Below, piece by piece: positions 1 through 35,056 of a DNA stretch of 64,000 bases. Position numbers and translations under genes: made by a program. Where the stretch lies: assembly GCA_946557105.1 (NCBI GenBank), contig CAMNSZ010000003.1:1-64000 (forward strand). Direction: 5' to 3'. The notes beneath the pieces were generated by a model. The model saw only the letters and a list, made by a program, of their open reading frames with translations, was not told the origin of the DNA and searched no databases. This stretch comes from an uncultured Lachnospiraceae bacterium. Its GTDB lineage: Bacteria; Bacillota; Clostridia; Lachnospirales; Lachnospiraceae. The stretch's first letter is position 1. The number at the start of each line of letters is the position of its first letter.

Positions 1-204
1 ACGGTTGATTTTTTCGACCTGACCGGGGGAAGTCATAACCGGGAGATTTACGGAGTATTTTATCCCTGCCGTCTCCATGGAACGGCGCAGCGCGTCAAGG
101 CTGCCGTCCGAAAAGGCTCTTGTACGGCTGGCAAGGCTCAGCTTGTGTATTACATTTACGCTTATTGCGTCGGGAAAAGTATGAGTGTGAAAATCAATTA
201 TCAT
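1..204 (-). CDS. Amidohydrolase-family metal-dependent hydrolase, N-terminal part (runs off the left edge)
   Basis: The reverse strand opens with ATG at 204 and stays open for 68 codons to the window edge, so only the N-terminus is present. The protein begins MIIDFHTHTFPDAIS; the D-x-H-x-H pattern near the N-terminus is the first metal-binding strand of TIM-barrel amidohydrolases. A GGAGG sits about five bases upstream of the start (211-215 on this strand). It is divergent from the peptide cluster that follows and probably marks the left boundary of that island. The substrate cannot be inferred from this fragment. Confidence 0.7.
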   Translation of the reverse strand, partial: MIIDFHTHTFPDAISVNVIHKLSLASRTRAFSDGSLDALRRSMETAGIKYSVNLPVMTSPGQVEKINR

Positions 205-366
205 ATGGGCCTCCGTAAACCGTTTTGCTTTTTCTTATCATAGATTAAAAGAGAAAAATTGTCAATGCGACCAGACGGTAAGAGCTTAAGGGAAAGGAAA
301 GGCGAGAACAAAAGGTAACGTAAATATGAATTTGCGGTGATTTAATCTATATATAATTTGTTGTAT

Positions 367-372
367 TATAAT
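367..372 (+). promoter_or_regulatory. Possible -10 box of the peptide-cluster promoter
   Basis: A perfect TATAAT lies 125 bases upstream of the acyl-carrier-like gene in an AT-rich intergenic stretch. No good -35 is seen at 17 bases, so the promoter may need an activator. It is the best promoter candidate before the operon starting at 498. Confidence 0.35.
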
Positions 373-398
373 GCTATAGTTTTTAAGAATTTTGTCGG

Positions 399-432
399 TT
401 TTAGATGATTTTAATTGATTTTAGATGATTTT
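399..432 (+). repeat. Two direct repeats of TTTTAGATGATTTT spaced 20 bp apart
   Basis: The 14-base word TTTTAGATGATTTT occurs at 399-412 and again at 419-432, exactly two helical turns apart, between the putative -10 box and the first gene of the peptide cluster. Spacing of this kind is typical of tandem binding sites for a dimeric regulator. No regulator gene is present in the cluster, and the sequence is low in complexity, so function is inferred. Confidence 0.4.
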
Positions 433-497
433 TGACGATAAAAAAGAAACGGTCGAGGTTTTCTAAGCTTAAAATTTTAAGGAGGGGGAATGACATT

Positions 498-776
498 GTG
501 ATAAATACTATAGAAGTACGAGATAAACTGTTTGAAATACTAAATGATATGGGTATTATATGTGATACCGAAAAAGTTGAAGAAGACGTTGATTTACGTG
601 AATATATTGAAGATTCCATTGTCTTTATCGGATTTATAGCAGAAATAGAAGCTAAATTTAATTTTGAATTAGATGACAGCGTTCTGTTGTACGATAATTT
701 ACAGTCGTTGAATGGATTTGTAAAAATGCTGGAAGGGTATATTAACGACAATGAAGCACGAGCTGCGGATCATTAA
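498..776 (+). CDS. Acyl-carrier-like protein of the peptide cluster
   Basis: A 92-residue acidic helical protein. The sequence around residues 34-50 (REYIEDSIVFIGFIAEIEA) carries the D-S pair and following hydrophobic helix of acyl carrier proteins, with S40 placed to receive phosphopantetheine. The GTG start at 498 is chosen because an AGGAGGGGG run sits nine bases before it; an in-frame ATG at 432 lacks a ribosome site and adds a basic tail unlike ACPs. It is the first gene of the cluster and directly precedes the precursor peptide. From memory, ACP-related proteins are described in clostridial peptide maturation systems (TIGR04069), but membership is untested. Likely role: carry an acyl or aminoacyl group for peptide modification. 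Confidence 0.75.
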   Translation: MINTIEVRDKLFEILNDMGIICDTEKVEEDVDLREYIEDSIVFIGFIAEIEAKFNFELDDSVLLYDNLQSLNGFVKMLEGYINDNEARAADH

Positions 777-851
777 CCTGTTTTAGGAACAAAAGCTGAT
801 GATATGATATATTTATGAATATTTAAAATCACTAGAAAGGAGGTGGGAAAA

Positions 852-959
852 ATGAAATTACAGAAAAAGAATACAGTTGCTCAGAACAGTGAGAACGTAG
901 TTCTGTATGGCGGTGAGTATGGTAATAGCTCTTGCACCAATTATACTACATACTGCTAA
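852..959 (+). CDS. RiPP precursor peptide (35 aa, Gly-Gly junction, two Cys)
   Basis: An ATG with an excellent ribosome site (AAAGGAGGTG ending seven bases before it) opens a 35-codon frame. The first 21 residues are Lys/Asn/Gln-rich and end in Leu-Tyr-Gly-Gly, a double-glycine type junction. The remaining 14 residues, EYGNSSCTNYTTYC, hold C28 and C35 (the last residue), three Tyr and three Thr. Such a composition suits a modified core peptide. It lies between an ACP-like gene and a SPASM radical SAM gene, where precursors usually sit, and is followed by a hairpin. I do not recognise a named family with certainty; a CLI_3235-type clostridial peptide is possible. The cleavage site and modified residues are inferred. 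Confidence 0.75.
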   Translation: MKLQKKNTVAQNSENVVLYGGEYGNSSCTNYTTYC

Positions 960-984
960 TCGTTATGTTTGAGTAACAAAGTTG

Positions 985-1025
985 TGTCCGAAGGTGTTAT
1001 GTGTATCGACATCTTCGGACATTTT
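985..1025 (+). terminator. Hairpin between precursor and first maturase (attenuating terminator or processing site)
   Basis: TGTCCGAAGGTGT (985-997) pairs with ACATCTTCGGACA (1009-1021) over 13 bases with a single G-U pair and an 11-base loop, followed by four T. The weak T-run suggests partial termination or 3'-end protection, giving more precursor than enzyme message. Confidence 0.6.
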
Positions 1026-1042
1026 CAGAAAAGGGCTAAATA

Positions 1043-2047
1043 ATGGTAAACAAAGATGATTTGAAATGCTATTTGAAAACAGGGAGTCTGATTTTTCCTA
1101 GGGTTGTACAGGTGGAGATTACAAACAGATGTCCGTTTAGGTGTCCGCAGTGCTATAAAAAGCAATTGTCGGTGGAAGATATGCCGATAGATAAATTAAT
1201 AAGTGTCATAGAAGAGTGTTCGGAGCAGGGAACGGAGCTTTTTATTCTTAATGGGGGAGAACCCTTAATTTATCCTCATATTATATCTATCATAAAATAT
1301 CTTACCGAGCGCAAAATTCAATTTAACTGTTTTAGCAGCGGATACGGTCTGACAGATGAAATCATTCAATATGTTAAAATGGGGTGTATGAATTTATTTA
1401 TATCTTTGAATGGTTCTACAGAAGAAGTAAATAAATTATCCAGAGAGGGTTATTCTTATGCAGTGGATGCAATAAAGCGGCTGGATGCGCAGGGAGCCCC
1501 CTTTAAAATCAATTGGGTTGCACGCCACGATAATGTATATGATTTTCCGGCAGTAGTGGAGCTCGCTTTGGAAAATCATGCAAGGGCGGTGTCTGTTATT
1601 GGGAATAAGCTAATCAATAACAGCTATGTTGACTCGCCCATGGAAGCGGAAGACTATAAATATTTAGCTGATTATATAAACACATTTCCGTTTTACGACA
1701 AAATAGGCATAACGGTAGAACAGTGCTTTCCTCAATTGTCAGCATTGCTTCCAACCTTACCTAAAACGCCGTTAAGCGGGTGTCTTGCCGGTGTTTTCAG
1801 CTGTAATGTGACTGTGGACGGACAGTATATGCCATGCACGCAGCTGCATTATAAGGAACAATTTGGCAGCGTTAAAGAATATTGGGTAAATTCAGAGATC
1901 TTAAAAGGGCTGCGAAAAATCAAGAAAGAAAATTTAAAATATTGTCAGGAGTGTCAGGAAAAATATTGTAGGATTTGTCGCGCCGTATCTAAAGAATGCC
2001 ATGATGATTTTTCCGTCGGATATGAAATGTGTCCGATTCGACAGTGA
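1043..2047 (+). CDS. Radical SAM/SPASM peptide maturase 1
   Basis: A 334-residue protein. The radical SAM cluster motif is C30-x3-C34-x2-C37 within ITNRCPFRCPQC, followed by the glycine-rich NGGEPL motif that binds S-adenosylmethionine. The C-terminal 90 residues contain a run of cysteines (from SGC through CQECQEKYCRIC to MCPI) that fits a SPASM domain binding auxiliary iron-sulfur clusters. SPASM enzymes of this layout form thioether or C-C crosslinks in peptide substrates, or modify carbohydrates. It starts 83 bases after the precursor stop and is followed by the protease gene at 55 bases. With a second SPASM enzyme in the same cluster, two separate radical steps are likely. Bond type is not predictable. 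Confidence 0.85.
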   Translation: MVNKDDLKCYLKTGSLIFPRVVQVEITNRCPFRCPQCYKKQLSVEDMPIDKLISVIEECSEQGTELFILNGGEPLIYPHIISIIKYLTERKIQFNCFSSGYGLTDEIIQYVKMGCMNLFISLNGSTEEVNKLSREGYSYAVDAIKRLDAQGAPFKINWVARHDNVYDFPAVVELALENHARAVSVIGNKLINNSYVDSPMEAEDYKYLADYINTFPFYDKIGITVEQCFPQLSALLPTLPKTPLSGCLAGVFSCNVTVDGQYMPCTQLHYKEQFGSVKEYWVNSEILKGLRKIKKENLKYCQECQEKYCRICRAVSKECHDDFSVGYEMCPIRQ

Positions 2048-2101
2048 GTCAAAATAATGAATAAGAGTAAATAAATATATGTTTCGGCATGGGGAGGAAA
2101 A

Positions 2102-3913
2102 ATGGAAGGTACACAAAGACAAAGCGTTAAGATTGCTATTTTAGATTCGGGGCTGAAAACATGTCATCCGGCTATATCGGGTAAACAATTTGAATTGGTG
2201 CGGATTTGGGAAAACGGAACAATTTCCAATGAAGAAAAGGATGGTGAAGATATTTTTGGCCATGGTACCGCTATATATAATATTTACCGCTCCAGACTGC
2301 CTGAAGCTTATATAACCTGTTATAAAATCCAAGACGGATTTGAGGAGGCCGACGAAAATTGTCTGATTGCCGCGCTGGAGAAAATATTAGAGGAGCAGGA
2401 TTATGATCTTATAAATATCAGTTTAGGCACGACATGTTTTAGCAGCAGGCTTTATGATTTGTGCGAGCAAATCAGCCGTAAGGGTTCGGTGCTTGTAGCG
2501 GCCTTTGATAATGACGGGGCGATTTCCTATCCGGCCGCCTACCCGTTTGTAATCGGTGTGGATAGCAGTGATAATTGTAATAACAGAAACCAGATAGAAT
2601 ATGTTCACAGCAATCTTGTCAATATCAGGGCGAACGGAAAGTATCAAAGACTGGCATGGGTGAATCCCGACTATATTCTGTTGGGAGGAAGCAGCTTTGC
2701 CTGTGCCCATGTAGGGGTAATAATAGCCGATTTCATACAAAAGGGAGTAGCCGGCTATGAAAATATGCTTTCTGCGCTAAGGAAGGCGGCCGTTAGGGAA
2801 ATTGGGTTTGTGAACAGAAGCGGCAGCAAAAGAAAAACATTATTCCCCATACAAAAAGCCGCAATAGTTCCCTTTAATAAGGAAATACACAGTATTGTCA
2901 GATATAGCGATTTGCTGGGGTTTGAAATTGAAGGGATTTATGATTACAAATATTCTCCTCATATCGGCGCGACGCCCGATCATTTACTGCATACGGACAG
3001 CCTGTCCTTTAATCGGAAGATTCAGAATATAGACCATATAGAATGGGATAATTTTGATACGCTGATTGTGGGACATTTAGAGCATTACGGGAAGCTGACA
3101 AATCGGGAATCGGCGCATACGGAATTGATTAACAAGGCTTTGAATCATCATAAGAAGGTTTTTTCTTTTGATGTAAACAAGGAATTTGAAGATAATGATA
3201 ATGTTTATTATCCTCTTATTGACCAAAGGCATCTTCAGGATAATTGCTTCGGAAAGCTTTATAAGTTAAATAAGCCGATTATCGGGGTATTCGGCACAAG
3301 CTCCAAGCAGGGAAAGTATACGCTGCAGCTGGCAATGAGGAGACAGCTGTTAAAAATGGGCTGGCATTTAGGACAGATTGGAACGGAGCCCACAGGGGAA
3401 TTGTTTGGTATGGATTGTTCTTTTCCCATGGGATATAACTCCAGTGTTAATTTAACGGGAGGCGAGAGCATTGTATATATAAATAATGCCTTGGCGGATT
3501 TGTGCAAGAAAGATGTGGATTTGATAATGATTGGCTCGCAGTCCAACACAGTTCCCTATAGCTATGCAAATCTGGCTTATTATCCGCTTACTCAAATTAA
3601 TTTACTTATGGCGGCGCAGCCGGATGTTGTGGTGTTGTGCGTGAATCCTTTTGATGATGATAACTATATTGAAAGGACAAAAAATACGATGGAGAGTCTG
3701 GCCGGCACAAAGGTTATAGCGTTGGTCGTTTTCCCGATGAAGCTAAGAGATAACTTTGGCAGCATATATTCGTCTAAAGTACCTCTGACCAAGGAGGAAT
3801 GCGAGGCGGTTACAGAGAGGCTGCAAAAGCGTCACGGGGTGAAAACGTTTGTGTTAAATGAAAATATAGCCGCCAAGCTGTGTGAAACTATAATAAGTTA
3901 TTTGTCGGAGTGA
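2102..3913 (+). CDS. Subtilisin-type (S8) protease fused to a P-loop domain
   Basis: 603 residues in two parts. Residues 1-250 are a compact subtilisin domain with the whole catalytic triad visible: D15 in AILDSG, H54 in FGHGTA and S198 in GGSSFACAHVG. There is no signal peptide, so it acts in the cytoplasm. Residues ~390-600 are a second domain starting with a P-loop, GTSSKQGK at 398-405, resembling the nucleotide-binding half of DUF1611-type proteins. The natural job is removal of the leader after the Gly-Gly junction, possibly with NTP-dependent control. I recall a clostridial peptide maturation family (TIGR04066) in such clusters but cannot confirm this one belongs. The fusion is unusual. 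Confidence 0.75.
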   Translation: MEGTQRQSVKIAILDSGLKTCHPAISGKQFELVRIWENGTISNEEKDGEDIFGHGTAIYNIYRSRLPEAYITCYKIQDGFEEADENCLIAALEKILEEQDYDLINISLGTTCFSSRLYDLCEQISRKGSVLVAAFDNDGAISYPAAYPFVIGVDSSDNCNNRNQIEYVHSNLVNIRANGKYQRLAWVNPDYILLGGSSFACAHVGVIIADFIQKGVAGYENMLSALRKAAVREIGFVNRSGSKRKTLFPIQKAAIVPFNKEIHSIVRYSDLLGFEIEGIYDYKYSPHIGATPDHLLHTDSLSFNRKIQNIDHIEWDNFDTLIVGHLEHYGKLTNRESAHTELINKALNHHKKVFSFDVNKEFEDNDNVYYPLIDQRHLQDNCFGKLYKLNKPIIGVFGTSSKQGKYTLQLAMRRQLLKMGWHLGQIGTEPTGELFGMDCSFPMGYNSSVNLTGGESIVYINNALADLCKKDVDLIMIGSQSNTVPYSYANLAYYPLTQINLLMAAQPDVVVLCVNPFDDDNYIERTKNTMESLAGTKVIALVVFPMKLRDNFGSIYSSKVPLTKEECEAVTERLQKRHGVKTFVLNENIAAKLCETIISYLSE

Positions 3914-3929
3914 AAATAGGGGAACGGTA

Positions 3930-4772
3930 ATGCATGATTTTGAAAAGATAGCCCAGTATAAGGAGCTATATGTGAAGCTGTTAAGAAAACACTCTGTGTA
4001 TTCTAAGAAATCCTCATGCTGGGAAAAAGATATGGGAAAATACAATCCTGTCGTTAATGCGGAATTTAAGAAATATTTTCCGGCGGAAAGATTTATGGGA
4101 ATAAAGGATGAATCGGAAAGAATGAAAAGGGCTTTGCGCTGGGTAAATGAAACCCTGATGTTTTCCAGACAAGAGGAGTGCCCATATCCCTTAAGCGCCG
4201 AAAGGATACTTGCCCATGTGAAAAAAAACAAAGTGACGGTTAATTGCCTTTCTCACGCAATGGTGTTAAACGAGTGCCTGCATCAGTTAGGAATTATCAG
4301 TCGTATGATTTTCTGTATGCCCATAGATATTACCCCTGTTGAAAACCATGTTGTGGTGCATGCCTATAGCGAGAAATATTCCAAATGGGTAATGCTGGAC
4401 CCCAGCTGGAATTGCTATTATTGCGACCAATCGGGAAAAATCTTGTCGTTGCCGGAAATACGAAGCGCTATTGTTGCGGATTTACCGTTTTCCATACAAT
4501 ATAATCACAGAATGATGGCGGGAGTGAAGGAATCCTCCTATAAACAGTATTTTGCTTGGGAGAATCTTTATTCGTATTTGAGTAAAAATCTTTTTCGATT
4601 TTTTTATATAGGAGATTTTAACGCTGAAGGAACAGTGCGGTATGAACTGCTTCCGTCTACAATTTTGGAAGAGGAATTTGAGTTGGTCGAGGAGGAAGGC
4701 GGTCATATGGATATACATAGGTTTGTGACAAATGACGAAGAGTTCTGGCAGGTTCCGGCGGCAGCTTTATAG
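3930..4772 (+). CDS. Transglutaminase-like (papain-fold) protein of the peptide cluster
   Basis: 280 residues. The Cys-His-Asp triad of the transglutaminase core is in place: C106 in VNCLSHAMVLN at the start of a helix, H144 in NHVVVHAY and D157 in WVMLDPSW, with usual spacing. In bacteria this fold includes peptidases, amidases and acyl or aminoacyl transferases. There is no signal peptide. It starts 16 bases after the protease stop, indicating translation from the same message. In this context it could trim the peptide or form an amide bond with a group carried on the ACP-like protein. The reaction is inferred from the fold only. Confidence 0.7.
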   Translation: MHDFEKIAQYKELYVKLLRKHSVYSKKSSCWEKDMGKYNPVVNAEFKKYFPAERFMGIKDESERMKRALRWVNETLMFSRQEECPYPLSAERILAHVKKNKVTVNCLSHAMVLNECLHQLGIISRMIFCMPIDITPVENHVVVHAYSEKYSKWVMLDPSWNCYYCDQSGKILSLPEIRSAIVADLPFSIQYNHRMMAGVKESSYKQYFAWENLYSYLSKNLFRFFYIGDFNAEGTVRYELLPSTILEEEFELVEEEGGHMDIHRFVTNDEEFWQVPAAAL

Positions 4773-4798
4773 TGCAGTGATAAGTAGGAGGTAAGAGA

Positions 4799-6127
4799 AT
4801 GAAGGCGTCTATGTGTAATTTTGTCCATGAAAGCGAAAATGGAGATTTGTATTTGTATAACTCTCTTCAAGGTACCAAAAGTCTGATTTTTGTCAATTCC
4901 CGTAAGGCGTCAAAAATCCGGGAAATGCTGTCGTTAGAATATTCGGAGGAAGAGGACGAGGATTATAAGCGTCTTGTAAAAAACGGATATCTCATAGAGG
5001 ATGACGCGGATGAGCAACAGGCAAGGGAATATAAATTTTTAAAGGTGGTAAGTGAGCCGCGTTTAAATATTACTATTTTGCCTACCGAGAAATGTAACTT
5101 TAAATGTGTTTATTGTTATGAAACCTTTGAAAAGCCCGGTATGTCCATCGAAACACAGGAAAGCCTTATCAGCTTTGTGAAAAAAAATATTAACAAATAC
5201 ACGGGTCTTTCGGTGCATTGGTTTGGCGGAGAACCGTTAATAGCCATGGATGTCATTGAAAATCTGTCTAAAGAGTTTATTAGTATATGTAAGAGCGTAA
5301 AAAAGACATATATGGCGGGTATGACAACCAACGGATATCTTCTTGACCCGGAGATGTTGGACAAGCTGTTAAAATATCATGTGTACAAATATCAGATAAC
5401 AATCGACGGTGTCGAAAAAACCCATGATTTCCAGAGACCCTTAATGGACGGTACGCCGACGTTTAAAAGAATCGTAGATAATCTGGTAAATATTCGTTTA
5501 CATGCCAAAAGCAAGTTATTTAACATTGCTATAAGGGCAAATCTTTCAAAAAGCATATATGAAAGCTTTGACGAGTATATAGAGGCGCTACATCATATAT
5601 GCGGACAGGATTCAAGATTTTCAATTTATATGCATCAGGTTTCCGACTGGGGAGGAGAGAGAGTCACCCGGATAAAGGAGGAGCTGATTGTTCAGGATAT
5701 GTATGTGGGAGCTCTTGAAAAGTTAAAAAAATCTCCGTTTAAATTTAATTACTATGTACATCTGGGAAAGCTGGATTCCGAATCCTGCGTTTGTTATGCG
5801 AACAAATTAAATTATTTCATTATAGGCTCGGACGGAACTCTCTATAAATGCACCGGTAATTTTGTAGAGGATTGCAATAAAATCGGAAAACTGGAAAGCA
5901 ACGGTCAGATAAGTATGGACAAAAATAAGGAAGCTTCATGGGTTTGTAATGTAAAACGCGTTATGGATAAGTGTAAAACATGTTATTTTAGCGGGAACTG
6001 TCTCTTTAGCATCTGTCCTGCCGTACAGGTCAGAAAATTAGATAGCTCGATATGCTCCTTTGAGCAGCAGTATTTAGAGCATTTTTTGGAGCTGTTTAGT
6101 AAAGATGTTTATCAGATTATTGAATAG
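4799..6127 (+). CDS. Radical SAM/SPASM peptide maturase 2
   Basis: 442 residues. The N-terminal 85 residues look like a peptide-binding extension rich in acidic residues; then the radical SAM motif C99-x3-C103-x2-C106 in TEKCNFKCVYCYETF and WFGGEPL. The C-terminal SPASM region has cysteines in SDGTLYKCTG and in CKTCYFSGNCLFSICP. The architecture matches anaerobic peptide maturases related to SCIFF and sactipeptide enzymes; I recall the name CcpM (Cys-rich peptide radical SAM maturase, TIGR04068) for clostridial clusters with an ACP-related protein, and this is the better candidate of the two radical enzymes. It overlaps neither neighbour, and has a good AGGAGG site. Confidence 0.85.
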   Translation: MKASMCNFVHESENGDLYLYNSLQGTKSLIFVNSRKASKIREMLSLEYSEEEDEDYKRLVKNGYLIEDDADEQQAREYKFLKVVSEPRLNITILPTEKCNFKCVYCYETFEKPGMSIETQESLISFVKKNINKYTGLSVHWFGGEPLIAMDVIENLSKEFISICKSVKKTYMAGMTTNGYLLDPEMLDKLLKYHVYKYQITIDGVEKTHDFQRPLMDGTPTFKRIVDNLVNIRLHAKSKLFNIAIRANLSKSIYESFDEYIEALHHICGQDSRFSIYMHQVSDWGGERVTRIKEELIVQDMYVGALEKLKKSPFKFNYYVHLGKLDSESCVCYANKLNYFIIGSDGTLYKCTGNFVEDCNKIGKLESNGQISMDKNKEASWVCNVKRVMDKCKTCYFSGNCLFSICPAVQVRKLDSSICSFEQQYLEHFLELFSKDVYQIIE

Positions 6128-6176
6128 GGTGTAAGAATTATCGACATAGAGGGTTTACAAACGGGAGATAAAGGGT

Positions 6177-7190
6177 ATGAAAAAAATATTAGAAATACAG
6201 GAACCCATTATAACCACCTTTACGCATCATGCACATTTACTGACCATTTTAGGAACAGAGCCTAACGCAAGGGGGTGGGTCTTCAGCAATTATATTCAAA
6301 TTTATATAGACAATAATTTGAGAAAAAACAGTTGGGGAGATTTCTATTTTCCAATGCCATATGAGATTAAGTCGTTAGAATTATGCAAATGGATTCTGAC
6401 ACAAAAATGTCATGAGAATTTAGTGGATAAAAGATATTCCGATATAGTTGATTATATCAAGGATGTGTTGGAGAATGATTTCTTTGTCCATATGATGATT
6501 AACCATAAATATTTAGCGAACAGCTCTATTGACAGGACTCATGATATTCTGGTTTTCGGGTATGATCAGGCAAAGCAGGAGCTGCATTGCGCGGACTTTG
6601 CCTCCAGAGCCGGTAAATATATTTTTTTTAAATGCTCCTTTGACGAGTTTCGGGAAGCGTACAGAGACGAGGATGTAAAGAAGGGTTTCACGTATTTAAA
6701 CCATTTTATATATTCTTATAAAGTAAATAAAGAATGTGATTATGGGTACAATGTGCATAACATAATATTTTGGTTGAAGCAATATGTCAATAGTGAGGCT
6801 CCCGAATATTGGGAGGGATACAATTACAGTGGAAGAGTGCTTGTTACTTGGGGAATGGATTATTATGAGGTTTTGTGCAGAAATCTTTTAACCATAGGCG
6901 ACGAGCAGATTGACTTAAAATTTTACTATTTGCTGAAGGACCATAAAAAAATGATGCTGGAAAGACTGAAATTTTTAGAAAATGACAGCTTATGTCTCAA
7001 AGAATATATAGAAGCGTATGAAGAGATATACAAGGATATATCTATTGTCGTTAATATGGCTGTTAAACATAATGTAGTGAATCCAAAGGGGATTACAGAC
7101 AGGATGATTGACAGAATAAAGAATATTAAAGCGGCGGAATATAGGGTTTTGTGTAAACTAATTGATGTGTTGGAGGGCGTGGGAGGATAA
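6177..7190 (+). CDS. BtrH-like acyltransferase candidate of the peptide cluster
   Basis: 337 residues, no signal peptide or membrane segment. The centre (THDILVFGYDQ... LHCADFASRAGKY) has the pattern of papain-like folds in which a His starts a strand and an Asp follows in the next strand, as in the N-terminal domain of BtrH. BtrH moves an acyl group from its acyl carrier protein onto ribostamycin in butirosin synthesis. An ACP-like gene in the same operon makes an ACP-dependent acyl transfer to the peptide a coherent guess. The catalytic Cys is not obvious; the N-terminal HHAHLLTILGTE may form part of the site. Family assignment is tentative. Confidence 0.45.
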   Translation: MKKILEIQEPIITTFTHHAHLLTILGTEPNARGWVFSNYIQIYIDNNLRKNSWGDFYFPMPYEIKSLELCKWILTQKCHENLVDKRYSDIVDYIKDVLENDFFVHMMINHKYLANSSIDRTHDILVFGYDQAKQELHCADFASRAGKYIFFKCSFDEFREAYRDEDVKKGFTYLNHFIYSYKVNKECDYGYNVHNIIFWLKQYVNSEAPEYWEGYNYSGRVLVTWGMDYYEVLCRNLLTIGDEQIDLKFYYLLKDHKKMMLERLKFLENDSLCLKEYIEAYEEIYKDISIVVNMAVKHNVVNPKGITDRMIDRIKNIKAAEYRVLCKLIDVLEGVGG

Positions 7191-7252
7191 AATTACCGAT
7201 TGCCATGAAAAAACAGTAAAGAACAAAACGGTTTAAAAGTGGGTAGAGGATT

Positions 7253-8194
7253 ATGGTTTATTTAGAGATACGAGAGAGAATAGGAAATCAATTATTTCAA
7301 TACGCGTTTGCAAGGAAAATGGCTATTAAATTTCGTGATGAATTAGCTATTAATTTTGACCAAGTAATAGGAAGAAATTTGGCGGATCAAGGCTGGGTCA
7401 ATAAACTGGAGGACTATGCGCTTTATCCGTATAAGGATTATCAGCTAAGTCAATATGCGCTTTATCAAAAAGCAATTATAAGATTTCTAAAGCGTAAATT
7501 GTCTAAAATGAATGATATCGATATAAACAAATATTTACTGCGTATTGAAAACATGCTGAACAGGCTTGGAATTTTTTATTTATTTGACGGATTCTATGAT
7601 TTTAAGGAGCCCTTCGGATTTGTAAAGGATAAAATTCTGATAGGATATTTTGAATCCTCTAAATATTTTTCCGACGTCGATTCTGTCATCCGGCAGGAAT
7701 TGGTACCTAAGCACAGCAGAGTGGAGGAAAACGCCAGACTATATGATTTAATGGACAATACAGAGTCTGTGTGTGTGTCAATAAGAAGAGGGGATTTCTT
7801 GAGTGAAAGAGAAATCAATAATATATACATATGCGACGAAAAATATTTTTATGATGCGATAGAAAAAATACAGCAAATGTTAAAGGACATAGTATTTTTT
7901 ATTTTTTCGGATGATATAGAATGGGTAAAAGAAAATATGCATTTTCCGGGAACGGTTTATTATGAGACGGGTAAGGATCCCACGTGGGAAAAGCTTAGGA
8001 TGATGAGTCATTGCAAACACTTTATTATATCTAACAGCACCTTCAGCTGGTGGGCGCAGCACTTATCCCCAAATTCCAACAAGATAGTGATTGCACCGGA
8101 AATTTGGCGAAAAGACGGAAGAACGGTAGATATATACGAAGACGACTGGATACGAATTAACGTGGACAGAGGGAGCGGCAATAAAGATACATAA
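7253..8194 (+). CDS. Glycosyltransferase family 11 (alpha-1,2-fucosyltransferase-like)
   Basis: 313 residues with the hallmark blocks of GT11: RIGNQLFQYAFARKMA at the N-terminus, the donor-binding VSIRRGDF near residue 178, and FIISNSTFSWWAQHLSP near residue 263. The family moves fucose from GDP-fucose, usually to galactose at O-2, in glycan and O-antigen synthesis. Here no other sugar-polymer gene is nearby; it sits 62 bases after the BtrH-like gene in the same orientation and same AT-rich composition, so it may glycosylate the peptide product or be a passenger. The normally basic start (for example R-L-K-G) is replaced by EIRER. Confidence 0.75.
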   Translation: MVYLEIRERIGNQLFQYAFARKMAIKFRDELAINFDQVIGRNLADQGWVNKLEDYALYPYKDYQLSQYALYQKAIIRFLKRKLSKMNDIDINKYLLRIENMLNRLGIFYLFDGFYDFKEPFGFVKDKILIGYFESSKYFSDVDSVIRQELVPKHSRVEENARLYDLMDNTESVCVSIRRGDFLSEREINNIYICDEKYFYDAIEKIQQMLKDIVFFIFSDDIEWVKENMHFPGTVYYETGKDPTWEKLRMMSHCKHFIISNSTFSWWAQHLSPNSNKIVIAPEIWRKDGRTVDIYEDDWIRINVDRGSGNKDT

Positions 8195-8255
8195 GGATTT
8201 AAAGGCGGCAGAGTGTATTTGTCTGTCATGAAAAATATTAAGAAGGAGATAAAAA

Positions 8256-9248
8256 ATGAATAGTAAAGTACCGTCATTATGTGGAGTATATAAGGAATAT
8301 TTTCCTATAGGAACAATAGTGAATGATGAACTGGTAAGCAAGGACAGCGAGTTAATCACGAAACATTTCAATAGTATAACGCCTGAAAATGAGTTAAAGC
8401 TAAATAAAATACATCCGGATAAGGATACTTTTATTTTTGAAGAAGCCGATAAATTGGTGGATTTCGGAAGAAGAAATAATATGCTGGTAAGAGGGCATGT
8501 TTTGGTTTGGCACGATCATTCTCCGGAATGGTTCTTTACGAATGATAAGGGAGAAAAGGTATCAAGAGAAATTGTTTTGGGCAGATTGCAGGAATATATT
8601 AATTTGGTGGTTAAGCATTTTGGAAATAATATTTATTGCTGGGATGTGGTGAATGAAGCAATAGCTGATGATAATACGTTTTACAGACCGTCAAAGTGGC
8701 TGGAAACCATCGGAGAAGAATTTATAGAGAAGGCGTTTATTTTTGCCCATGAGGCAAATCCCGATATAAAGCTTTATTACAATGATTATAATGCGGAGAT
8801 GGGGGAAAAGGGCGATAAAGTATATTCTTTAATAAAGGGGCTGCTTAGCCGTGACGTACCTGTCCATGGAGTAGGGATACAGGGACATTACGACATAGTT
8901 TTTCATAAACCCGAAGCATTAAAATCAATGATAGAGAGGTATGCGGATTTAGGAATAAAGCTGCAGATAACAGAGATGGATGTATCTGTGTTCGGTTTTG
9001 ACGACAGAAACAATACCTTGCAGCGTCCCACCACAGAGCTGTTAGAGAGGCAGGCAGAATTTTATGAAAAAGCTTTTGAAATCTTTAGGGAATACAAAAG
9101 TGTGATTGAAGGGGTAACTATATGGGGTGTCACGGACAGATACACGTGGAAGGATGATTTCCCTGTAAACGGCAGAAAGGACTGGCCATTGCTTTTTGAT
9201 GAAAGCGGGGAGCCAAAAGCGGCCTTTAATTCCATTGTTTCGTTTTAA
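8256..9248 (+). CDS. Endo-1,4-beta-xylanase, GH10, cytoplasmic
   Basis: 330 residues covering only the GH10 catalytic barrel. The acid/base is E134 in WDVVNEAI and the nucleophile E240 in ITEMDVSV; substrate-binding WHDHSPEWF and the C-terminal GVTDRYTWKDDFP are also typical. There is no signal peptide, so it would hydrolyse imported xylo-oligosaccharides. It follows the fucosyltransferase by 61 bases with an AAGGAG ribosome site and is the last gene before a new promoter. It is AT-rich like the peptide cluster. Whether it belongs to that pathway or is a neighbour is open; a second, lipoprotein GH10 lies at 33670. Confidence 0.92.
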   Translation: MNSKVPSLCGVYKEYFPIGTIVNDELVSKDSELITKHFNSITPENELKLNKIHPDKDTFIFEEADKLVDFGRRNNMLVRGHVLVWHDHSPEWFFTNDKGEKVSREIVLGRLQEYINLVVKHFGNNIYCWDVVNEAIADDNTFYRPSKWLETIGEEFIEKAFIFAHEANPDIKLYYNDYNAEMGEKGDKVYSLIKGLLSRDVPVHGVGIQGHYDIVFHKPEALKSMIERYADLGIKLQITEMDVSVFGFDDRNNTLQRPTTELLERQAEFYEKAFEIFREYKSVIEGVTIWGVTDRYTWKDDFPVNGRKDWPLLFDESGEPKAAFNSIVSF

Positions 9249-9315
9249 TGTGTTAAATGTATTAAATATTATCTGATAAATTAGTTTCCTGCTACGGCGG
9301 CAGTCTGCCGGACCA

Positions 9316-9344
9316 TTGACTTTTGACGTTGAATGTGGTATTTT
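9316..9344 (+). promoter_or_regulatory. Promoter of the acyl-CoA synthetase gene
   Basis: TTGACT (9316-9321), 17 bases, then TATTTT (9339-9344). Just downstream lies a perfect inverted repeat, GCTTTAGC (9354-9361) and GCTAAAGC (9372-9379); TTTTGACG (9321-9328) is also mirrored by CGTCAAAA (9379-9386). An operator or leader hairpin at this site would control the gene at 9427. Confidence 0.5.
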
Positions 9345-9426
9345 ATGATAAGTGCTTTAGCAAGTAAAAACGCTAAAGCGTCAAAATTTAACGTAATGAA
9401 GCGAAGCATCGGAAAAGGAGCATAAA

Positions 9427-11061
9427 ATGCCGGTTACAGATTTGTTGGAGCGTAATCATAAGCTTTACGGGGAGGAAGTCGCATTGGTGGAATTGAATCC
9501 CACCATGCAGGATACAAGGAAAAGCACATGGAAGGAATATGATTTGGTACAGGCTACCTCCAATATTCCTTATAGAAGAGAGATAACATGGAGTATATTT
9601 GACGAAAAGGCTAATCGTGTGGCCAATATGCTGTTATCCCGGGGGATTCAGAAGGGAGACAGGGTTGCGATACTGATGTTCAATTGTCTGGAATGGCTGC
9701 CTATATATTTCGGTATTTTGAAAACGGGAGCCATTGCGGTACCCTTTAATTTTAGGTTTGCCTCTGACGAGATTCAGTATTGCGCGGATTTGGCGGAGGT
9801 TCATGTGCTGTTTTTCGGACCGGAATTTATAGGGAGGCTTGAGTCTATAGAGGAGCGGTTGAGCAAGGGGCGTTTGTTGATTTATGTGGGCGACGGCTGC
9901 CCTACCTTTGCGGAGAGCTATAGGGAATTGGTGGCGGACTGTTCCAGTCAGGCGCCCTTGGTGCGTCTGGAGGATGAGGATGATGCCGCAATTTATTTTT
10001 CCTCGGGAACTACAGGCTTCCCAAAGGCTATTTTACATAATCACGAGAGTCTGATGCAGGCGGCGCAGATGGAGCAGAAGCATCATTTGACGGATAGAGA
10101 CGACGTCTTTTTATGTATTCCCCCGCTCTATCACACGGGGGCAAAATTTCATTGGATGGGAAGCCTTTGCGCGGGAAGCAAGGCGGTTCTGTTAAAGGGA
10201 ACAAGTCCGGAGATTATATTGGATACGGTTTCCAAAGAGCATTGCACCATTGTGTGGCTTTTGGTTCCCTGGGCGCAGGATATTCTGGATGCGCTGGACA
10301 GGGGAGATTTGAAGCTTGAGGACTATGAGTTAGAGCAATGGCGGCTAATGCATATCGGAGCCCAGCCGGTTCCTCCTTCCCTGATTAAGCATTGGAGGGA
10401 ATATTTTCCTCATCATTTGTACGATACCAATTATGGATTGTCCGAATCCACGGGTCCGGGCTGCGTGCATCTGGGTGTTGAGAATATTCACAAGGTGGGG
10501 GCAATCGGAGTTCCCGGCTATCGTTGGAAGTGCAAAATTGTGGACGAGGGCGGCGCAGAAGTGGAAAAAGGCGAGGTTGGCGAGCTGTGCGTGAAGGGTC
10601 CGGGCGTAATGAGCTGTTATTACAACGACCCCAAGGCTACGGCAGAGACAATAAAGGACGGCTGGCTTTATACGGGAGACATGGCAATGCAGGACGAGGA
10701 CGGCTTCTATTTTCTGGTTGACCGCAAAAAAGACGTTATCGTCAGCGGCGGAGAGAATATATATCCCGTGCAGATTGAGAATTTTTTAAGCGCCTTTGAC
10801 AAGGTAAAGGACGTGGCTGTCATCGGATTGCCGGATAAGCGTCTGGGTGAAATTACAGGAGCCATTATTTCCATAAAAGAAGGAATGACCTGTACGGAGG
10901 AGGAGATTGAGGAATTCTGTAAGGAGCTTCCCCGTTACAAACGGCCCAAGCGCATTATTTTTGCGGAGGTTCCCAGAAATGCCACGGGCAAGATTGAAAA
11001 GCCTGCGCTGCGGAAGCTTTACGGCGCGGAGCAGCTGGTGGCGCAGCAGATTGAAGGCTGA
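9427..11061 (+). CDS. AMP-forming acyl-CoA synthetase family protein
   Basis: 544 residues. The adenylate-forming signature YFSSGTTGFPKAILH (near residue 190), the YGLSESTGPG loop, the YTGDMAMQDEDGF hinge region, and the C-terminal lysine in PRNATGKIEKPALR are all visible. Such enzymes activate a carboxylic acid with ATP and pass it to CoA or a carrier protein. A ribosome site AAAAGGAG precedes the ATG. It is monocistronic: its own promoter lies upstream and a terminator follows. It may be a catabolic fatty or aromatic acid ligase; an alternative worth noting is that it feeds the ACP-like protein of the adjacent cluster. The acid is unknown. Confidence 0.85.
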   Translation: MPVTDLLERNHKLYGEEVALVELNPTMQDTRKSTWKEYDLVQATSNIPYRREITWSIFDEKANRVANMLLSRGIQKGDRVAILMFNCLEWLPIYFGILKTGAIAVPFNFRFASDEIQYCADLAEVHVLFFGPEFIGRLESIEERLSKGRLLIYVGDGCPTFAESYRELVADCSSQAPLVRLEDEDDAAIYFSSGTTGFPKAILHNHESLMQAAQMEQKHHLTDRDDVFLCIPPLYHTGAKFHWMGSLCAGSKAVLLKGTSPEIILDTVSKEHCTIVWLLVPWAQDILDALDRGDLKLEDYELEQWRLMHIGAQPVPPSLIKHWREYFPHHLYDTNYGLSESTGPGCVHLGVENIHKVGAIGVPGYRWKCKIVDEGGAEVEKGEVGELCVKGPGVMSCYYNDPKATAETIKDGWLYTGDMAMQDEDGFYFLVDRKKDVIVSGGENIYPVQIENFLSAFDKVKDVAVIGLPDKRLGEITGAIISIKEGMTCTEEEIEEFCKELPRYKRPKRIIFAEVPRNATGKIEKPALRKLYGAEQLVAQQIEG

Positions 11062-33509: not shown

Positions 33510-33669
33510 CTTAAGCCGGATATAAGAAGGCGGATGTTAAAGGATATGATAAGGGGGTACAAAGAGGGTTTATATCTGCGGAAGAATTTCAGTCTTGCGT
33601 CAGTACGGGCTTGGTGTCTTCAGTGGTGCGGGATTTTGGTTGACGCTGGCAGGAAAGGTATAATGTACA

Positions 33670-35025
33670 ATGAGAAGGAAAATGACAATATTGGTATTAC
33701 TGTTGTTTGCCATGGGGGTGGCGGGCTGCGGAGAGAAGGCTTCAAAGGAGCAGGTAAAGGATACGCTTGCTTTAGCGCCGGAAATGTCAGGGGAGGAGGC
33801 TGTAGCGTCCTTAGAAGGCGAGGAGGTCGAGAAGGACGCTATGGAGGAATTTGATACGGATTTTAGAATGTATGATTCAATGGAGGATTTGCTGTCACAA
33901 GAAGGAATACGGTTCGGAACGCTGATAAATTGCAAGGCGCTTGACGACGAGAATTATCTGGAGCTTGTGAAGGCGCATTTTGGCAGCCTGACGGCCGGTA
34001 ACGAAATGAAGGCATACTCGTTGCTGGATCAAAGCGCTTCCAAGGCGGCTGAGGACGGAATGCCCGTGATGAATTTTACGCAGGCGGACAGGATTCTTGA
34101 TTTTGCACAGGCAAACGGTATAGGCGTTCGGGGGCATACGCTGGTGTGGGATGCCTATATGACGGACTGGTTTTTCAGGAAAGGTTATGACAGCAAGGGC
34201 GGATATGTGGATGAGGAGACAATGAAAAAGCGTCTTGAGTCCTATATTACCCAAGTGATATGGCATTTTGAAACCAAATATCCCGGTGTGGTGTATTGTT
34301 GGGATGTAGTGAACGAGGCTGTGGGAGACAGTGAAGGGGAGTATCTTGCAGAGGACGAAAGGCATGTGCGCACCATGAGGAACGGGGCGGATAATCCCTT
34401 TTATAAGCTGGTAGGGAACGATTATGTGGAATTGTCTTTTCTCTACGCAAGAAATGCCGTGGATGGTTTAAAGGCGGAGAATCCCAATGTGGATATAAAA
34501 TTGTTTTACAATGACTATAACACGTTTTTAGATCGGAAGAGAGATGCCATCTGCGCCCTTGTGGACAGCGTCAACGCCTATGCCGTGGACGGGGAGGGCA
34601 ACCCCAGAAGACTTTGCGACGGAGTGGGTATGCAGGGGTACATAGGCGGCTACGGAAGTCAGGCAGGCTGTATGAATGACAGTGATATTGAAAAGATGCG
34701 TACCGCGATAGAGCTGTACGCATCCCATGGCGTGGAGGTTCAAGTTACGGAGATGGCAGTGCGCAATTATGAAAACAGTGATGTCTTTGTTAAAATGCAT
34801 TCAGATTATTATAAAAGGCTGTTTGAGATGTTTCTTTCTTTGAATCAGGGGGAGAATAAGCCCCTTACAGGGATTTCCGTCTGGGGGCTGTATGACAGAC
34901 CGGAATTAAAAAAGGACGATTACAGCTACAAGATGAATGGCCCTTATTGTGGTCTGTTTACGGAGGAATATAAAGTAAAACAGGCTTTTGTAAATATTTA
35001 TCAGCTTTTAAAAGCAAAAAATTAA
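33670..35025 (+). CDS. Endo-1,4-beta-xylanase, GH10, surface lipoprotein
   Basis: 451 residues. The N-terminus is a lipoprotein signal (MRRKMTILVLLLFAMGVAGC) with the lipidated cysteine at C20, then an acidic linker to residue ~75 and a GH10 barrel with acid/base E216 (WDVVNEAV) and nucleophile E361 (VQVTEMAV). It is the only enzyme of the operon with an export signal, so it would make the first cuts in xylan at the cell surface. A 160-base gap precedes it. A + strand overlapping frame at 33534-33854 was judged spurious. Confidence 0.93.
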   Translation: MRRKMTILVLLLFAMGVAGCGEKASKEQVKDTLALAPEMSGEEAVASLEGEEVEKDAMEEFDTDFRMYDSMEDLLSQEGIRFGTLINCKALDDENYLELVKAHFGSLTAGNEMKAYSLLDQSASKAAEDGMPVMNFTQADRILDFAQANGIGVRGHTLVWDAYMTDWFFRKGYDSKGGYVDEETMKKRLESYITQVIWHFETKYPGVVYCWDVVNEAVGDSEGEYLAEDERHVRTMRNGADNPFYKLVGNDYVELSFLYARNAVDGLKAENPNVDIKLFYNDYNTFLDRKRDAICALVDSVNAYAVDGEGNPRRLCDGVGMQGYIGGYGSQAGCMNDSDIEKMRTAIELYASHGVEVQVTEMAVRNYENSDVFVKMHSDYYKRLFEMFLSLNQGENKPLTGISVWGLYDRPELKKDDYSYKMNGPYCGLFTEEYKVKQAFVNIYQLLKAKN

Positions 35026-35056
35026 ATCGCTTTATGCGGGAATGAGAGGAAGAAAA

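What the first reader, a model, noticed from the sequence alone, without database searches (positions are those of the whole stretch)
432..9248. Uncharacterised RiPP-type gene cluster with two SPASM enzymes, carrier protein and protease
One AT-rich operon-like run encodes an ACP-like protein (S40 present), a 35-residue Gly-Gly peptide with two Cys, two different radical SAM/SPASM enzymes, a subtilisin-P-loop fusion, a transglutaminase-fold protein, a BtrH-like protein and a GT11 glycosyltransferase. Radical SAM plus small Cys peptide is established RiPP logic; the added carrier protein, acyltransferase-like and glycosyltransferase genes suggest a hybrid product. I recall related clostridial systems (TIGR04065-04069, CcpM) with no known product. 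The product structure is inference.
Basis: partly seen in the sequence, partly recalled or inferred. Interest (0 to 1): 0.88.

Follow-up and report, generated by a model that had tools for sequence, protein, structure and literature searches.

The report
Ribosomal peptide cluster with acyl carrier
This is a small gene cluster of a widespread, uncharacterised family in which bacteria appear to make a short peptide on the ribosome, cross-link it, trim it, and probably attach a group carried on an acyl carrier protein, a combination that could yield a new kind of antibiotic-like peptide.

Summary
In detail: window 498-9248 is an AT-rich run (gene GC 0.32-0.42; next genes 0.48-0.51) with an intact carrier protein, a 35-residue peptide gene, two radical SAM/SPASM enzymes, a subtilase-P-loop fusion, a transglutaminase-fold protein, a BtrH-like protein, GT11 and GH10. 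The peptide is real: a profile from 42 relatives, window left out, ranks it first of 783 ORFs (E 6e-7). Its Gly-Gly is not a leader cut site but part of a family motif, LYxxE. I mapped 77 loci with the fusion protease; the usual order is SPASM, carrier, peptide, protease, exporters, BtrH-like. It is a sister of the CLI_3235/CcpM system, not a member: all four model cut-offs are missed, and that system's carrier-like protein lacks the carrier serine in 9 of 10 sequences; here 54 of 54 have it. Outside these clusters, BtrH-like genes have a carrier gene within 7 kb in 10 of 20 loci, against 1 of 19 control regions. One Paenibacillus cluster adds ketosynthases and an adenylation protein. Best reading: a cross-linked ribosomal peptide that is also acylated or aminoacylated from the carrier. 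Cargo, acceptor and product are inferred. New variant of a known kind.

The parts
498..776 (+). Acyl carrier protein with the phosphopantetheine Ser (S40, DSI motif); GTG start, RBS GGAGGGGG at 481-488
   Evidence: PF00550 28.1 bits, cut-off 20.8; Ser in 54 of 54 carrier-labelled proteins of the 77 loci; one ACPS-type phosphopantetheinyl transferase found in the genome
852..959 (+). Precursor peptide, 35 aa: basic leader, motif VVLYGGE, C-terminal Cys-containing core
   Evidence: held-out profile of 42 relatives, E 6.2e-7, first of 783 ORFs
984..1022 (+). RNA hairpin just after the precursor gene, possible attenuator that would leave more precursor mRNA than enzyme mRNA
   Evidence: 15-bp stem, -21.6 kcal/mol, z -4.8, 0 of 200 shuffles as good; the terminator scan did not list it, and its total was at chance (5 found, 5.8 expected)
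1043..2047 (+). rS1: PqqE/NirJ-like radical SAM/SPASM enzyme; radical SAM match starts at residue 24, so no room for an N-terminal recognition domain
   Evidence: PF04055 60.9 bits; best NCBIfam TIGR04055 83 bits, cut-off 500; rS1 in the operon run of 13 of 77 loci
2102..3913 (+). Subtilase (res. ~1-230; Asp15/His54/Ser198) fused to a TIGR04066/DUF1611 P-loop domain (res. ~250-603; GTSSKQGK)
   Evidence: PF00082 53.6 bits, PF07755 43.6 bits; Asp15, His54, Ser198 and Lys405 invariant in 63 of 63; QhpE and TIGR04066 models match 63 of 63 at E<=0.01
3930..4772 (+). Transglutaminase-fold protein with Cys92-His126-Asp143; possible amide-forming enzyme
   Evidence: PF01841 29.2 bits, cut-off 23; Cys, His, Asp kept in 9, 10 and 10 of 10 family members
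4799..6127 (+). rS2: main peptide-modifying radical SAM/SPASM enzyme
   Evidence: best NCBIfam TIGR04463 180.4 bits (cut-off 525), Clo7bot 157.5 (600), PapB 118 (340); nearest solved relative 5wgg (CteB, name recalled) E 3.1e-31
6177..7190 (+). BtrH-like protein, probable carrier-dependent acyltransferase; His122 kept in at least 90% of the family, Cys of the usual BtrH/C39 site apparently absent
   Evidence: family alignment A2; carrier gene within 7 kb of 10 of 20 relatives outside the clusters against 1 of 19 controls
7253..8194 (+). GT11 glycosyltransferase (accessory; only in the window among 77 loci)
   Evidence: PF01531 141.6 bits; no other tblastn hit at E<=1e-4 in the 77 loci
8256..9248 (+). 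GH10 enzyme (accessory; GH10 genes in the run of 3 of 77 loci)
   Evidence: PF00331 321 bits; L118 43% identical, L065 26%; AT-rich like the cluster

Best explanation
A ribosomal peptide (RiPP) pathway of a family sister to CLI_3235/CcpM. Step 1 (co-occurrence and domains shown, chemistry inferred): rS2 reads the basic MKxLxK leader and joins Cys of the core to another residue by a radical thioether, perhaps to the Glu of the LYxxE motif as QhpD and PapB do with Cys-Asp/Glu; rS1 makes a second change. Step 2 (carrier and partner shown, transfer inferred): the carrier is phosphopantetheinylated and holds an acyl or aminoacyl group, which the BtrH-like protein, or the transglutaminase-fold protein, moves to the peptide; the window peptide has no Lys after residue 6, so the new N-terminus or a hydroxyl is the likely acceptor. 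Step 3 (active site shown, cut inferred): the subtilase cuts off the leader inside the cell, as QhpE does, near VVLY; the fused P-loop domain has an intact site but unknown work. Step 4 (inferred): GT11 adds a sugar; the product leaves through an ABC exporter encoded elsewhere and most likely acts on neighbouring Gram-positive bacteria.
For: Conserved neighbourhood and held-out precursor profile; [YF]xxE in 32 of 67 position-selected small ORFs against 7.8 on average and at most 18 in 500 shuffles; subtilase triad 63 of 63, carrier Ser 54 of 54. Carrier link of the BtrH-like family outside these clusters: 10 of 20 loci against 1 of 19 control regions, the carrier being the next gene in 9 of the 10, all 10 carriers with the Ser, carrier, BtrH-like and phosphopantetheinyl transferase genes in a row in L177 and L185. 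Clusters with their own phosphopantetheinyl transferase (L070, L075) and with two ketosynthases, two short-chain reductases and an adenylation protein (L070). BtrH-like and transglutaminase-fold genes in 0 of the 11 loci L040-L050 (ten with split genes, one divergent fusion); the carrier-like protein TIGR04069 lacks the Ser in 9 of 10. QhpD/QhpE/QhpF logic: PMC7876137, passages. PapB Cys-Xn-Asp, n=0-6: PMC9413430, abstract.
Against: No synthase or adenylation gene was recognised in the window cluster, so the cargo is unknown; the nearest ligase (9427-11061) has chromosomal GC (0.495). The Cys expected in BtrH/C39 folds appears to be missing in most of the family, the window included. Glu-to-Cys spacing varies from 0 to 18 residues, which fits a recognition motif as well as a cross-link site, and Glu comes before Cys, not after as in PapB. 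No ABC gene lies in the window run, although 64 of the 77 loci have one. In 8 of 41 well-flanked loci no SPASM gene was found, in 9 no carrier, and L065 has none of the other labelled genes. 35 of the 67 position-selected ORFs lack [YF]xxE, some being chance ORFs. Of the 20 BtrH-like loci outside the clusters 10 have no carrier within reach.
Confidence: 0.55

Rival explanations
1. A plain cross-linked RiPP: the carrier is a scaffold or leader-presenting protein that holds no cargo, and the BtrH-like and transglutaminase-fold proteins are extra proteases or dead relatives. This is what the carrier-like protein of the CcpM system may be.
For: The sister system has a carrier fold without the Ser in 9 of 10 sequences and still gives an active product, SacP23 (PMC10731318, passages; the Ser state of that strain's own protein was not checked). 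The window cluster has no recognised loading enzyme. The BtrH-like protein lacks the usual Cys.
Against: Ser kept in 54 of 54 carriers; phosphopantetheinyl transferases inside two clusters and beside two BtrH-like genes elsewhere; ketosynthases and an adenylation protein in L070.
Confidence: 0.25
2. Cut-and-cap by the fusion protein: the subtilase makes a new N-terminus and the fused DUF1611-type domain itself caps it, from the carrier or from a small molecule, with ATP or CoA at its P-loop.
For: C-terminal domain matches DUF1611 in 30 of 30 and the model named N-acetyltransferase DgcN in 5 of 63; formyltransferase-fold genes stand just upstream of the fusion in L064 and L065; SacP23 could not be sequenced from its N-terminus (PMC10731318).
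Against: The same domain serves the CcpM system, where the carrier-like protein mostly has no Ser, so it cannot in general be the carrier-dependent step; that DgcN acetylates rests on the model's name and recall (the passages of PMC12363236 do not state it); SacP23's blocked end has other possible causes.
Confidence: 0.15
3. A carbohydrate-related or cofactor pathway in which the small ORF is a bystander, since GT11 and GH10 are in the run and the genome has xylan-type genes.
For: GT11 and GH10 domains; GH10 in the run of 3 of 77 loci; a GH10 gene with a lipoprotein-like start and other glycosidase-like genes at 30.6-36.6 kb (by eye).
Against: 42 motif-bearing peptides in 33 other loci and first rank in the window by a held-out profile; no GT11 hit in the other 76 loci.
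Confidence: 0.05

Closest known systems
CLI_3235 bacteriocin system (TIGR04065 precursor, CcpM TIGR04068, TIGR04066, TIGR04069, subtilase, ABC); product SacP23
   Same: Homologous parts: M(K/R)KLxK-type leader, SPASM enzyme, subtilase, TIGR04066 domain, carrier-fold protein, ABC exporter (PMC10731318 passages; PMC4573289 one passage)
   Different: Subtilase and TIGR04066 are one protein here and separate genes in 10 of the 11 loci L040-L050; carrier Ser present here, lost in 9 of 10 there; BtrH-like and transglutaminase-fold genes here, in 0 of those 11; motif LYxxE here, TIEAFGC or TVEAYADC and the like there; all four model cut-offs missed
Quinohemoprotein amine dehydrogenase maturation QhpD-QhpE-QhpF
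   Same: Radical SAM thioether enzyme, cytoplasmic QhpE subtilase that removes a leader, ABC exporter (PMC7876137 passages); QhpE model matches 63 of 63 fusions
   Different: Substrate there is an enzyme subunit, not a short peptide; no carrier or BtrH-like protein is named in the passages read; window scores 118 bits against a QhpE cut-off of 165
PapB-type ranthipeptide enzymes
   Same: rS2 matches the PapB model at 118 bits; PapB joins Cys to Asp or Glu (PMC9413430 abstract)
   Different: Below the cut-off of 340; Glu precedes Cys in these precursors
Butirosin BtrH with carrier BtrI (recalled), and AdmF of andrimid (recalled; title of Fortin 2007 seen in a reference list)
   Same: BtrH-like or transglutaminase-fold protein paired with a carrier protein
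   Different: Window protein has no BtrH_N match of its own and apparently lacks the usual Cys; the acceptor here would be a ribosomal peptide; AdmF was not compared by sequence

Membership tests
RiPP | small precursor gene conserved beside modifying enzyme and protease | tested here: met
   held-out profile E 6.2e-7; rSAM in 33 of 41, carrier in 32 of 41 well-flanked loci
RiPP | modified mature peptide detected | not testable with these tools
   needs expression and mass spectrometry
CLI_3235/CcpM system | precursor over TIGR04065 cut-off (26 bits) | tested here: not met
   window peptide no match at E<=10; of 10 family peptides tested, best 12.4 bits
CLI_3235/CcpM system | radical SAM over TIGR04068 cut-off (500 bits) | tested here: not met
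   rS2 92.3, rS1 40.8 bits
CLI_3235/CcpM system | TIGR04066 protein over cut-off (200 bits) | tested here: not met
   84.2 bits over residues 252-603; clear homology
CLI_3235/CcpM system | carrier-related protein TIGR04069 | tested here: not met
   no match at E<=1; window place not among the matches in its own genome
Clo7bot (TIGR04334) / TIGR04463 maturases | over model cut-off (600 / 525 bits) | tested here: not met
   157.5 and 180.4 bits
Ranthipeptide | Cys joined to a non-alpha carbon | not testable with these tools
   only sequence resemblance of rS2 to PapB (118 of 340 bits)
Functional acyl carrier protein | PF00550 over cut-off and phosphopantetheine Ser | tested here: met
   28.1 bits, cut-off 20.8; Ser40 in the sequence; one ACPS-family enzyme found in the genome. 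Loading itself not tested
BtrH family | PF14399 BtrH_N match | tested here: inconclusive
   window none; 14 of 40 family members at E<=0.1; hhalign E 8.5e-5 (60%) and 6.9e-4 (27%) to two true BtrH_N proteins
QhpE protease | over NF049966 cut-off (165 bits) | tested here: not met
   118 bits

The most novel reading that the evidence does not exclude
A widespread, undescribed class of ribosomal lipopeptides or aminoacyl-peptides: radical-SAM cross-linked short peptides that receive an acyl or aminoacyl group from a dedicated acyl carrier protein through a new family of BtrH-like transferases, which also forms its own carrier/transferase/phosphopantetheinyl-transferase module outside RiPP clusters.
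Probability: 0.4. Interest if true: 0.85.

Novelty: new variant of a known kind. Interest (0 to 1): 0.68.

Why it matters
If right, it joins two biosynthetic worlds, ribosomal peptides cross-linked by radical SAM enzymes and carrier-protein acyl chemistry, in one compact cluster found in Lachnospiraceae and other Clostridia, Paenibacillus and Treponema, with protease relatives (mostly without the full gene set) in several other phyla. It gives a handle on the carrier-like protein of the CLI_3235 systems, which looks like a degenerate form of the live carrier here. It also proposes a function, carrier-dependent acyl transfer, for a protein family that mostly escapes the present Pfam models, and it can be tested with a handful of proteins.

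Tried and rejected
Gly-Gly leader reading: rejected, the residues fall in the variable part of LYxxE. Direct member of CLI_3235/CcpM, Clo7bot or TIGR04463: rejected by cut-offs. SacP23's blocked N-terminus as support for carrier capping: dropped, because carrier-like proteins of that system mostly lack the Ser; I also gave up fitting its mass 3404 to a cut site, since its exact sequence was not in hand. GH10 and GT11 as core genes: not supported; 3 of 77 and 1 of 77 loci, though GH10 lies between carrier and BtrH-like genes in L118. Acyl-CoA ligase 9427-11061 as the loading enzyme: unlikely by GC. The first genome-contig scan with the single protein found nothing; the alignment scan gave 74 loci. 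Profile searches of solved structures gave no relative for the BtrH-like family. Promoter-like sites in 200-9600: 45 against 32.5 expected; terminator-like sites at chance. Paper searches for DUF1611 and BtrH with RiPP terms gave nothing on point in the rows listed (10 of 981; 42: 15 of 85); a search for RiPP, radical SAM, acyl carrier and lipopeptide terms gave 4 papers, reviews, mining or prediction (listing only). PMC9062424 and PMC7343975 only name CcpM and CLI_3235 in the passages seen. That this cluster type is undescribed rests (25 of 46 listed), in an open-access library.

Rows dropped before counts: of 94 fetched loci L031-L124, seven (L031-L036, L039) were dropped as copies of named loci and eleven (L040-L050) were set apart, leaving 76 plus the window = 77. 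L040-L050 are ten loci with separate subtilase and TIGR04066-type genes and one divergent fusion (L050); I call the ten CcpM-type from gene content, TIGR04069 being over its cut-off in two of those genomes tested, G276 and G007, not from a TIGR04068 test of each. A3 uses the window and 62 of the 66 listed fusion proteins; A2 the window and 39 of 44 listed BtrH-like proteins; A5 uses 30 of 63. The 42 training peptides were chosen with a motif pattern. The 20 test loci are the best-scoring places outside fusion loci, without G000:C3:76850 (already in L170) and with one skipped (G127:C8:153573); several are the same module in different genera, so they are not 20 independent events, and 5 of the 20 are shorter than 15 kb. 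The 19 control stretches were picked by hand by coordinates, mostly but not wholly from the same genomes. Of the 12 sequences, two true carriers (L164, L167) were left out of the count of 10; 5 of the 10 are over the TIGR04069 cut-off, and some are near-copies (L159/L160, L162/L168).
Full report
What is there. Window 498-9248 holds nine genes on the + strand: carrier protein, 35-residue peptide, radical SAM/SPASM enzyme rS1, subtilase-P-loop fusion, transglutaminase-fold protein, radical SAM/SPASM enzyme rS2, BtrH-like protein, GT11 and GH10. Gene GC is 0.315-0.418 up to 9248 and 0.477-0.509 in the next three genes, so the AT-rich run includes GT11 and GH10 and ends before the acyl-CoA ligase at 9427. 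A strong hairpin (984-1022, -21.6 kcal/mol, z -4.8) follows the peptide gene, as expected where a precursor must be made in excess of its enzymes (inference; the terminator scan did not list it). The only other genome of the same genus among the 299 searched has no match to the fusion protease.

The family. That search of 299 genomes of the window's family found close full-length matches to the fusion at ten places in eight genomes, two of them in the window's own genome, and weaker or partial matches in others (65 genomes in all). A profile scan of named genomes gave 74 loci: Lachnospiraceae and other Clostridia, Paenibacillus, Tumebacillus, Treponema, and more distant relatives in Latescibacterota, Gemmatimonadota, KSB1 and Bacteroidetes, most of which show few of the partner genes. 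From contig lengths, L031/L055 is Anaeromicropila populeti and L035/L089 [Clostridium] polysaccharolyticum, so the window's family is Lachnospiraceae (inference). I called genes in 77 loci. In the contiguous same-strand run around the fusion gene ABC transporters occur in 64 of 77, carriers in 41, rS2 in 36, BtrH-like in 36, rS1 in 13 and the transglutaminase-fold gene in 10; many contigs are cut short. Of the 41 loci with at least 6 kb on both sides (window added by hand), 33 have a SPASM gene, 32 a carrier, 34 a BtrH-like gene, 7 a transglutaminase-fold gene and 38 an ABC gene; eight have no SPASM gene. A common order is rS2, carrier, peptide, fusion protease, two ABC genes, BtrH-like, with variants; the window's own order differs, rS2 standing after the protease.

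The peptide. Family peptides read M-K-K-x-L-x-K..., then a hydrophobic-x-L-Y-x-x-E motif, then Cys. The 42 training peptides (33 loci) were picked with a motif pattern, so the set leans towards it; the window was not in it. Their profile ranks the window peptide first of 783 ORFs of 20-150 aa, E 6.2e-7, the next at 0.24. A set chosen by position, basic start and Cys, not by the motif, has 67 ORFs in 44 loci, the window's included and some chance ORFs among them; [YF]xxE is in 32 of them, against a mean of 7.8 and a maximum of 18 in 500 shuffles, and 30 of 67 end in Cys. The window's Gly-Gly is the variable part of LYxxE. The leader resembles that of the CLI_3235 peptides (TIGR04065) found in 19 of 394 genomes of the Paenibacillus family searched, for example MRKLVKR...TIEAFGCGC.

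The enzymes. The subtilase triad and the P-loop lysine are invariant in 63 of 63 fusions. All 63 match the QhpE and TIGR04066 models and 5 match DgcN; 30 of 30 C-terminal parts match DUF1611, with solved relative 2g0t at E 6e-11. rS2 has CxxxCxxC and seven more Cys present in all sequences of the alignment; its nearest solved relative is 5wgg (E 3.1e-31). In three Paenibacillus loci a PqqD-like protein stands beside rS1 (two of three over the Pfam cut-off). The transglutaminase-fold protein keeps Cys, His and Asp in 9, 10 and 10 of 10 family members. The carrier Ser is in 54 of 54.

Is the carrier alive? Three lines say yes. First, L070 (Paenibacillus polysaccharolyticus) has two ketosynthases, two short-chain reductases, a phosphopantetheinyl transferase, an adenylation protein with a weak carrier domain at its end (PF00550 18.1 bits, cut-off 20.8) and a BtrH_N protein over the Pfam cut-off in the same run; L075 has a phosphopantetheinyl transferase. 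Second, the BtrH-like family, searched on its own, occurs in 33 of 299 family genomes; in the 20 places taken outside fusion loci a carrier gene lies within about 7 kb in 10, as the next gene in 9 of these, against 1 of 19 control regions. All ten carriers keep the Ser, and in L177 and L185, the two checked, the third gene is a phosphopantetheinyl transferase. Several of these modules are related to each other, so the ten are not independent. Two more carrier-plus-BtrH-like regions without the protease lie in the window's own genome (L169, L170). Third, the contrast with the CcpM type: 0 of the 11 loci L040-L050 (ten with split genes, one divergent fusion) have a BtrH-like or transglutaminase-fold gene, and the carrier-related protein TIGR04069 lacks the Ser in 9 of 10 sequences, 4 of the 5 over the cut-off. 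Against: 10 of the 20 BtrH-like loci have no carrier nearby, and no loading enzyme was recognised in the window.

How it most likely works. Cross-link by rS2 (and rS1), transfer of a carrier-bound group by the BtrH-like or transglutaminase-fold protein, leader removal by the subtilase in the cytoplasm, sugar by GT11, export by an ABC protein from elsewhere. The closest worked-out logic is QhpD-QhpE-QhpF, where the radical SAM enzyme makes Cys-to-Asp/Glu thioethers, a subtilase removes the leader in the cytoplasm and an ABC protein exports (PMC7876137, passages). PapB tolerates 0-6 residues between Cys and Asp (PMC9413430, abstract), so a variable Glu-Cys distance does not exclude a Cys-Glu bond, but Glu stands before Cys here and the spacing reaches 18. 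Other genes in relatives fit a family that decorates peptide ends: formyltransferase-fold genes beside the protease in L064 and L065, PF02441 flavoproteins (the fold of EpiD, recalled) in L063 and L086, whose peptides end in Cys, a carbamoyltransferase and a GT2 gene in L056, a dehydroquinate-synthase-like gene in L065. An AgrB gene (L058) and a LytTR regulator (L090) near clusters would suit a secreted, density-controlled product.

Known relatives. SacP23 from Paenibacillus polymyxa #23 (CcpM type) was expressed in B. subtilis, inhibited several Gram-positive bacteria, gave m/z 3404 and resisted N-terminal sequencing (PMC10731318, passages and outline). A five-gene cluster of that type without an evident peptide was described in Roseburia intestinalis (PMC4573289, one passage). 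The window fails all four cut-offs that define this system. Butirosin BtrH/BtrI and andrimid AdmF are recalled precedents for carrier-dependent amide formation by these folds; for AdmF I saw only the title of the 2007 paper in a reference list and a figure legend naming a transglutaminase-like gene (PMC13151354).

Limits. No structure could be predicted. The cargo, the acceptor, the cross-link and the biological activity are inferences. Gene calls were made by script. The literature library is open access only.

Noticed in passing
L177 6734-8795 and L185 6732-8738 (carrier next to BtrH-like also in L175, L176, L179, L184, L186, L188): A small gene group of carrier protein, BtrH-like protein and, in the two checked (L177, L185), a phosphopantetheinyl transferase, in different genera of the window's family, with none of the cluster's protease or SPASM genes nearby; function unknown to me.
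   Followed up: partly
L169 (G000 contig C4) and L170 (G000 contig C3, 76-95 kb): Two more carrier-plus-BtrH-like regions in the window's own genome without the fusion protease; L169 with an SDR-like gene (by eye) and two ABC genes, L170 with three carriers, a BtrH_N protein over the Pfam cut-off and a radical SAM gene with a weak B12-binding match.
   Followed up: partly
L037 (G000 contig C9, 86-105 kb): A second fusion-protease cluster in the same genome, with ABC genes, an adenylation protein next to a second carrier, and the short ORF MKKLHKKVKIMNTVFFYKGDACC.
   Followed up: partly
L118 15680-16711, L065 12750-14000, window 8256-9248: GH10 genes inside the runs of these peptide clusters; in L118 the gene sits between carrier and BtrH-like genes. 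Role unexplained.
   Followed up: partly
L063 11836-12450 and L086 11839-12405: PF02441 flavoprotein next to the protease where the precursors end in Cys, which suggests oxidative decarboxylation of the C-terminal Cys (inference).
   Followed up: partly
L093, L094, L121: Fusion protease with carrier, BtrH-like and ABC genes but no SPASM gene found, so the carrier part may be more basic than the cross-linking part.
   Followed up: no
window 39122-40513: A radical SAM/SPASM enzyme directly before a secD/secF-like gene, which looks by eye like the ordinary SCIFF locus.
   Followed up: no
window 30618-36592: Glycoside-hydrolase-like genes that look by eye like xylan utilisation, including a GH10 protein with a lipoprotein-like start; ordinary.
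   Followed up: no
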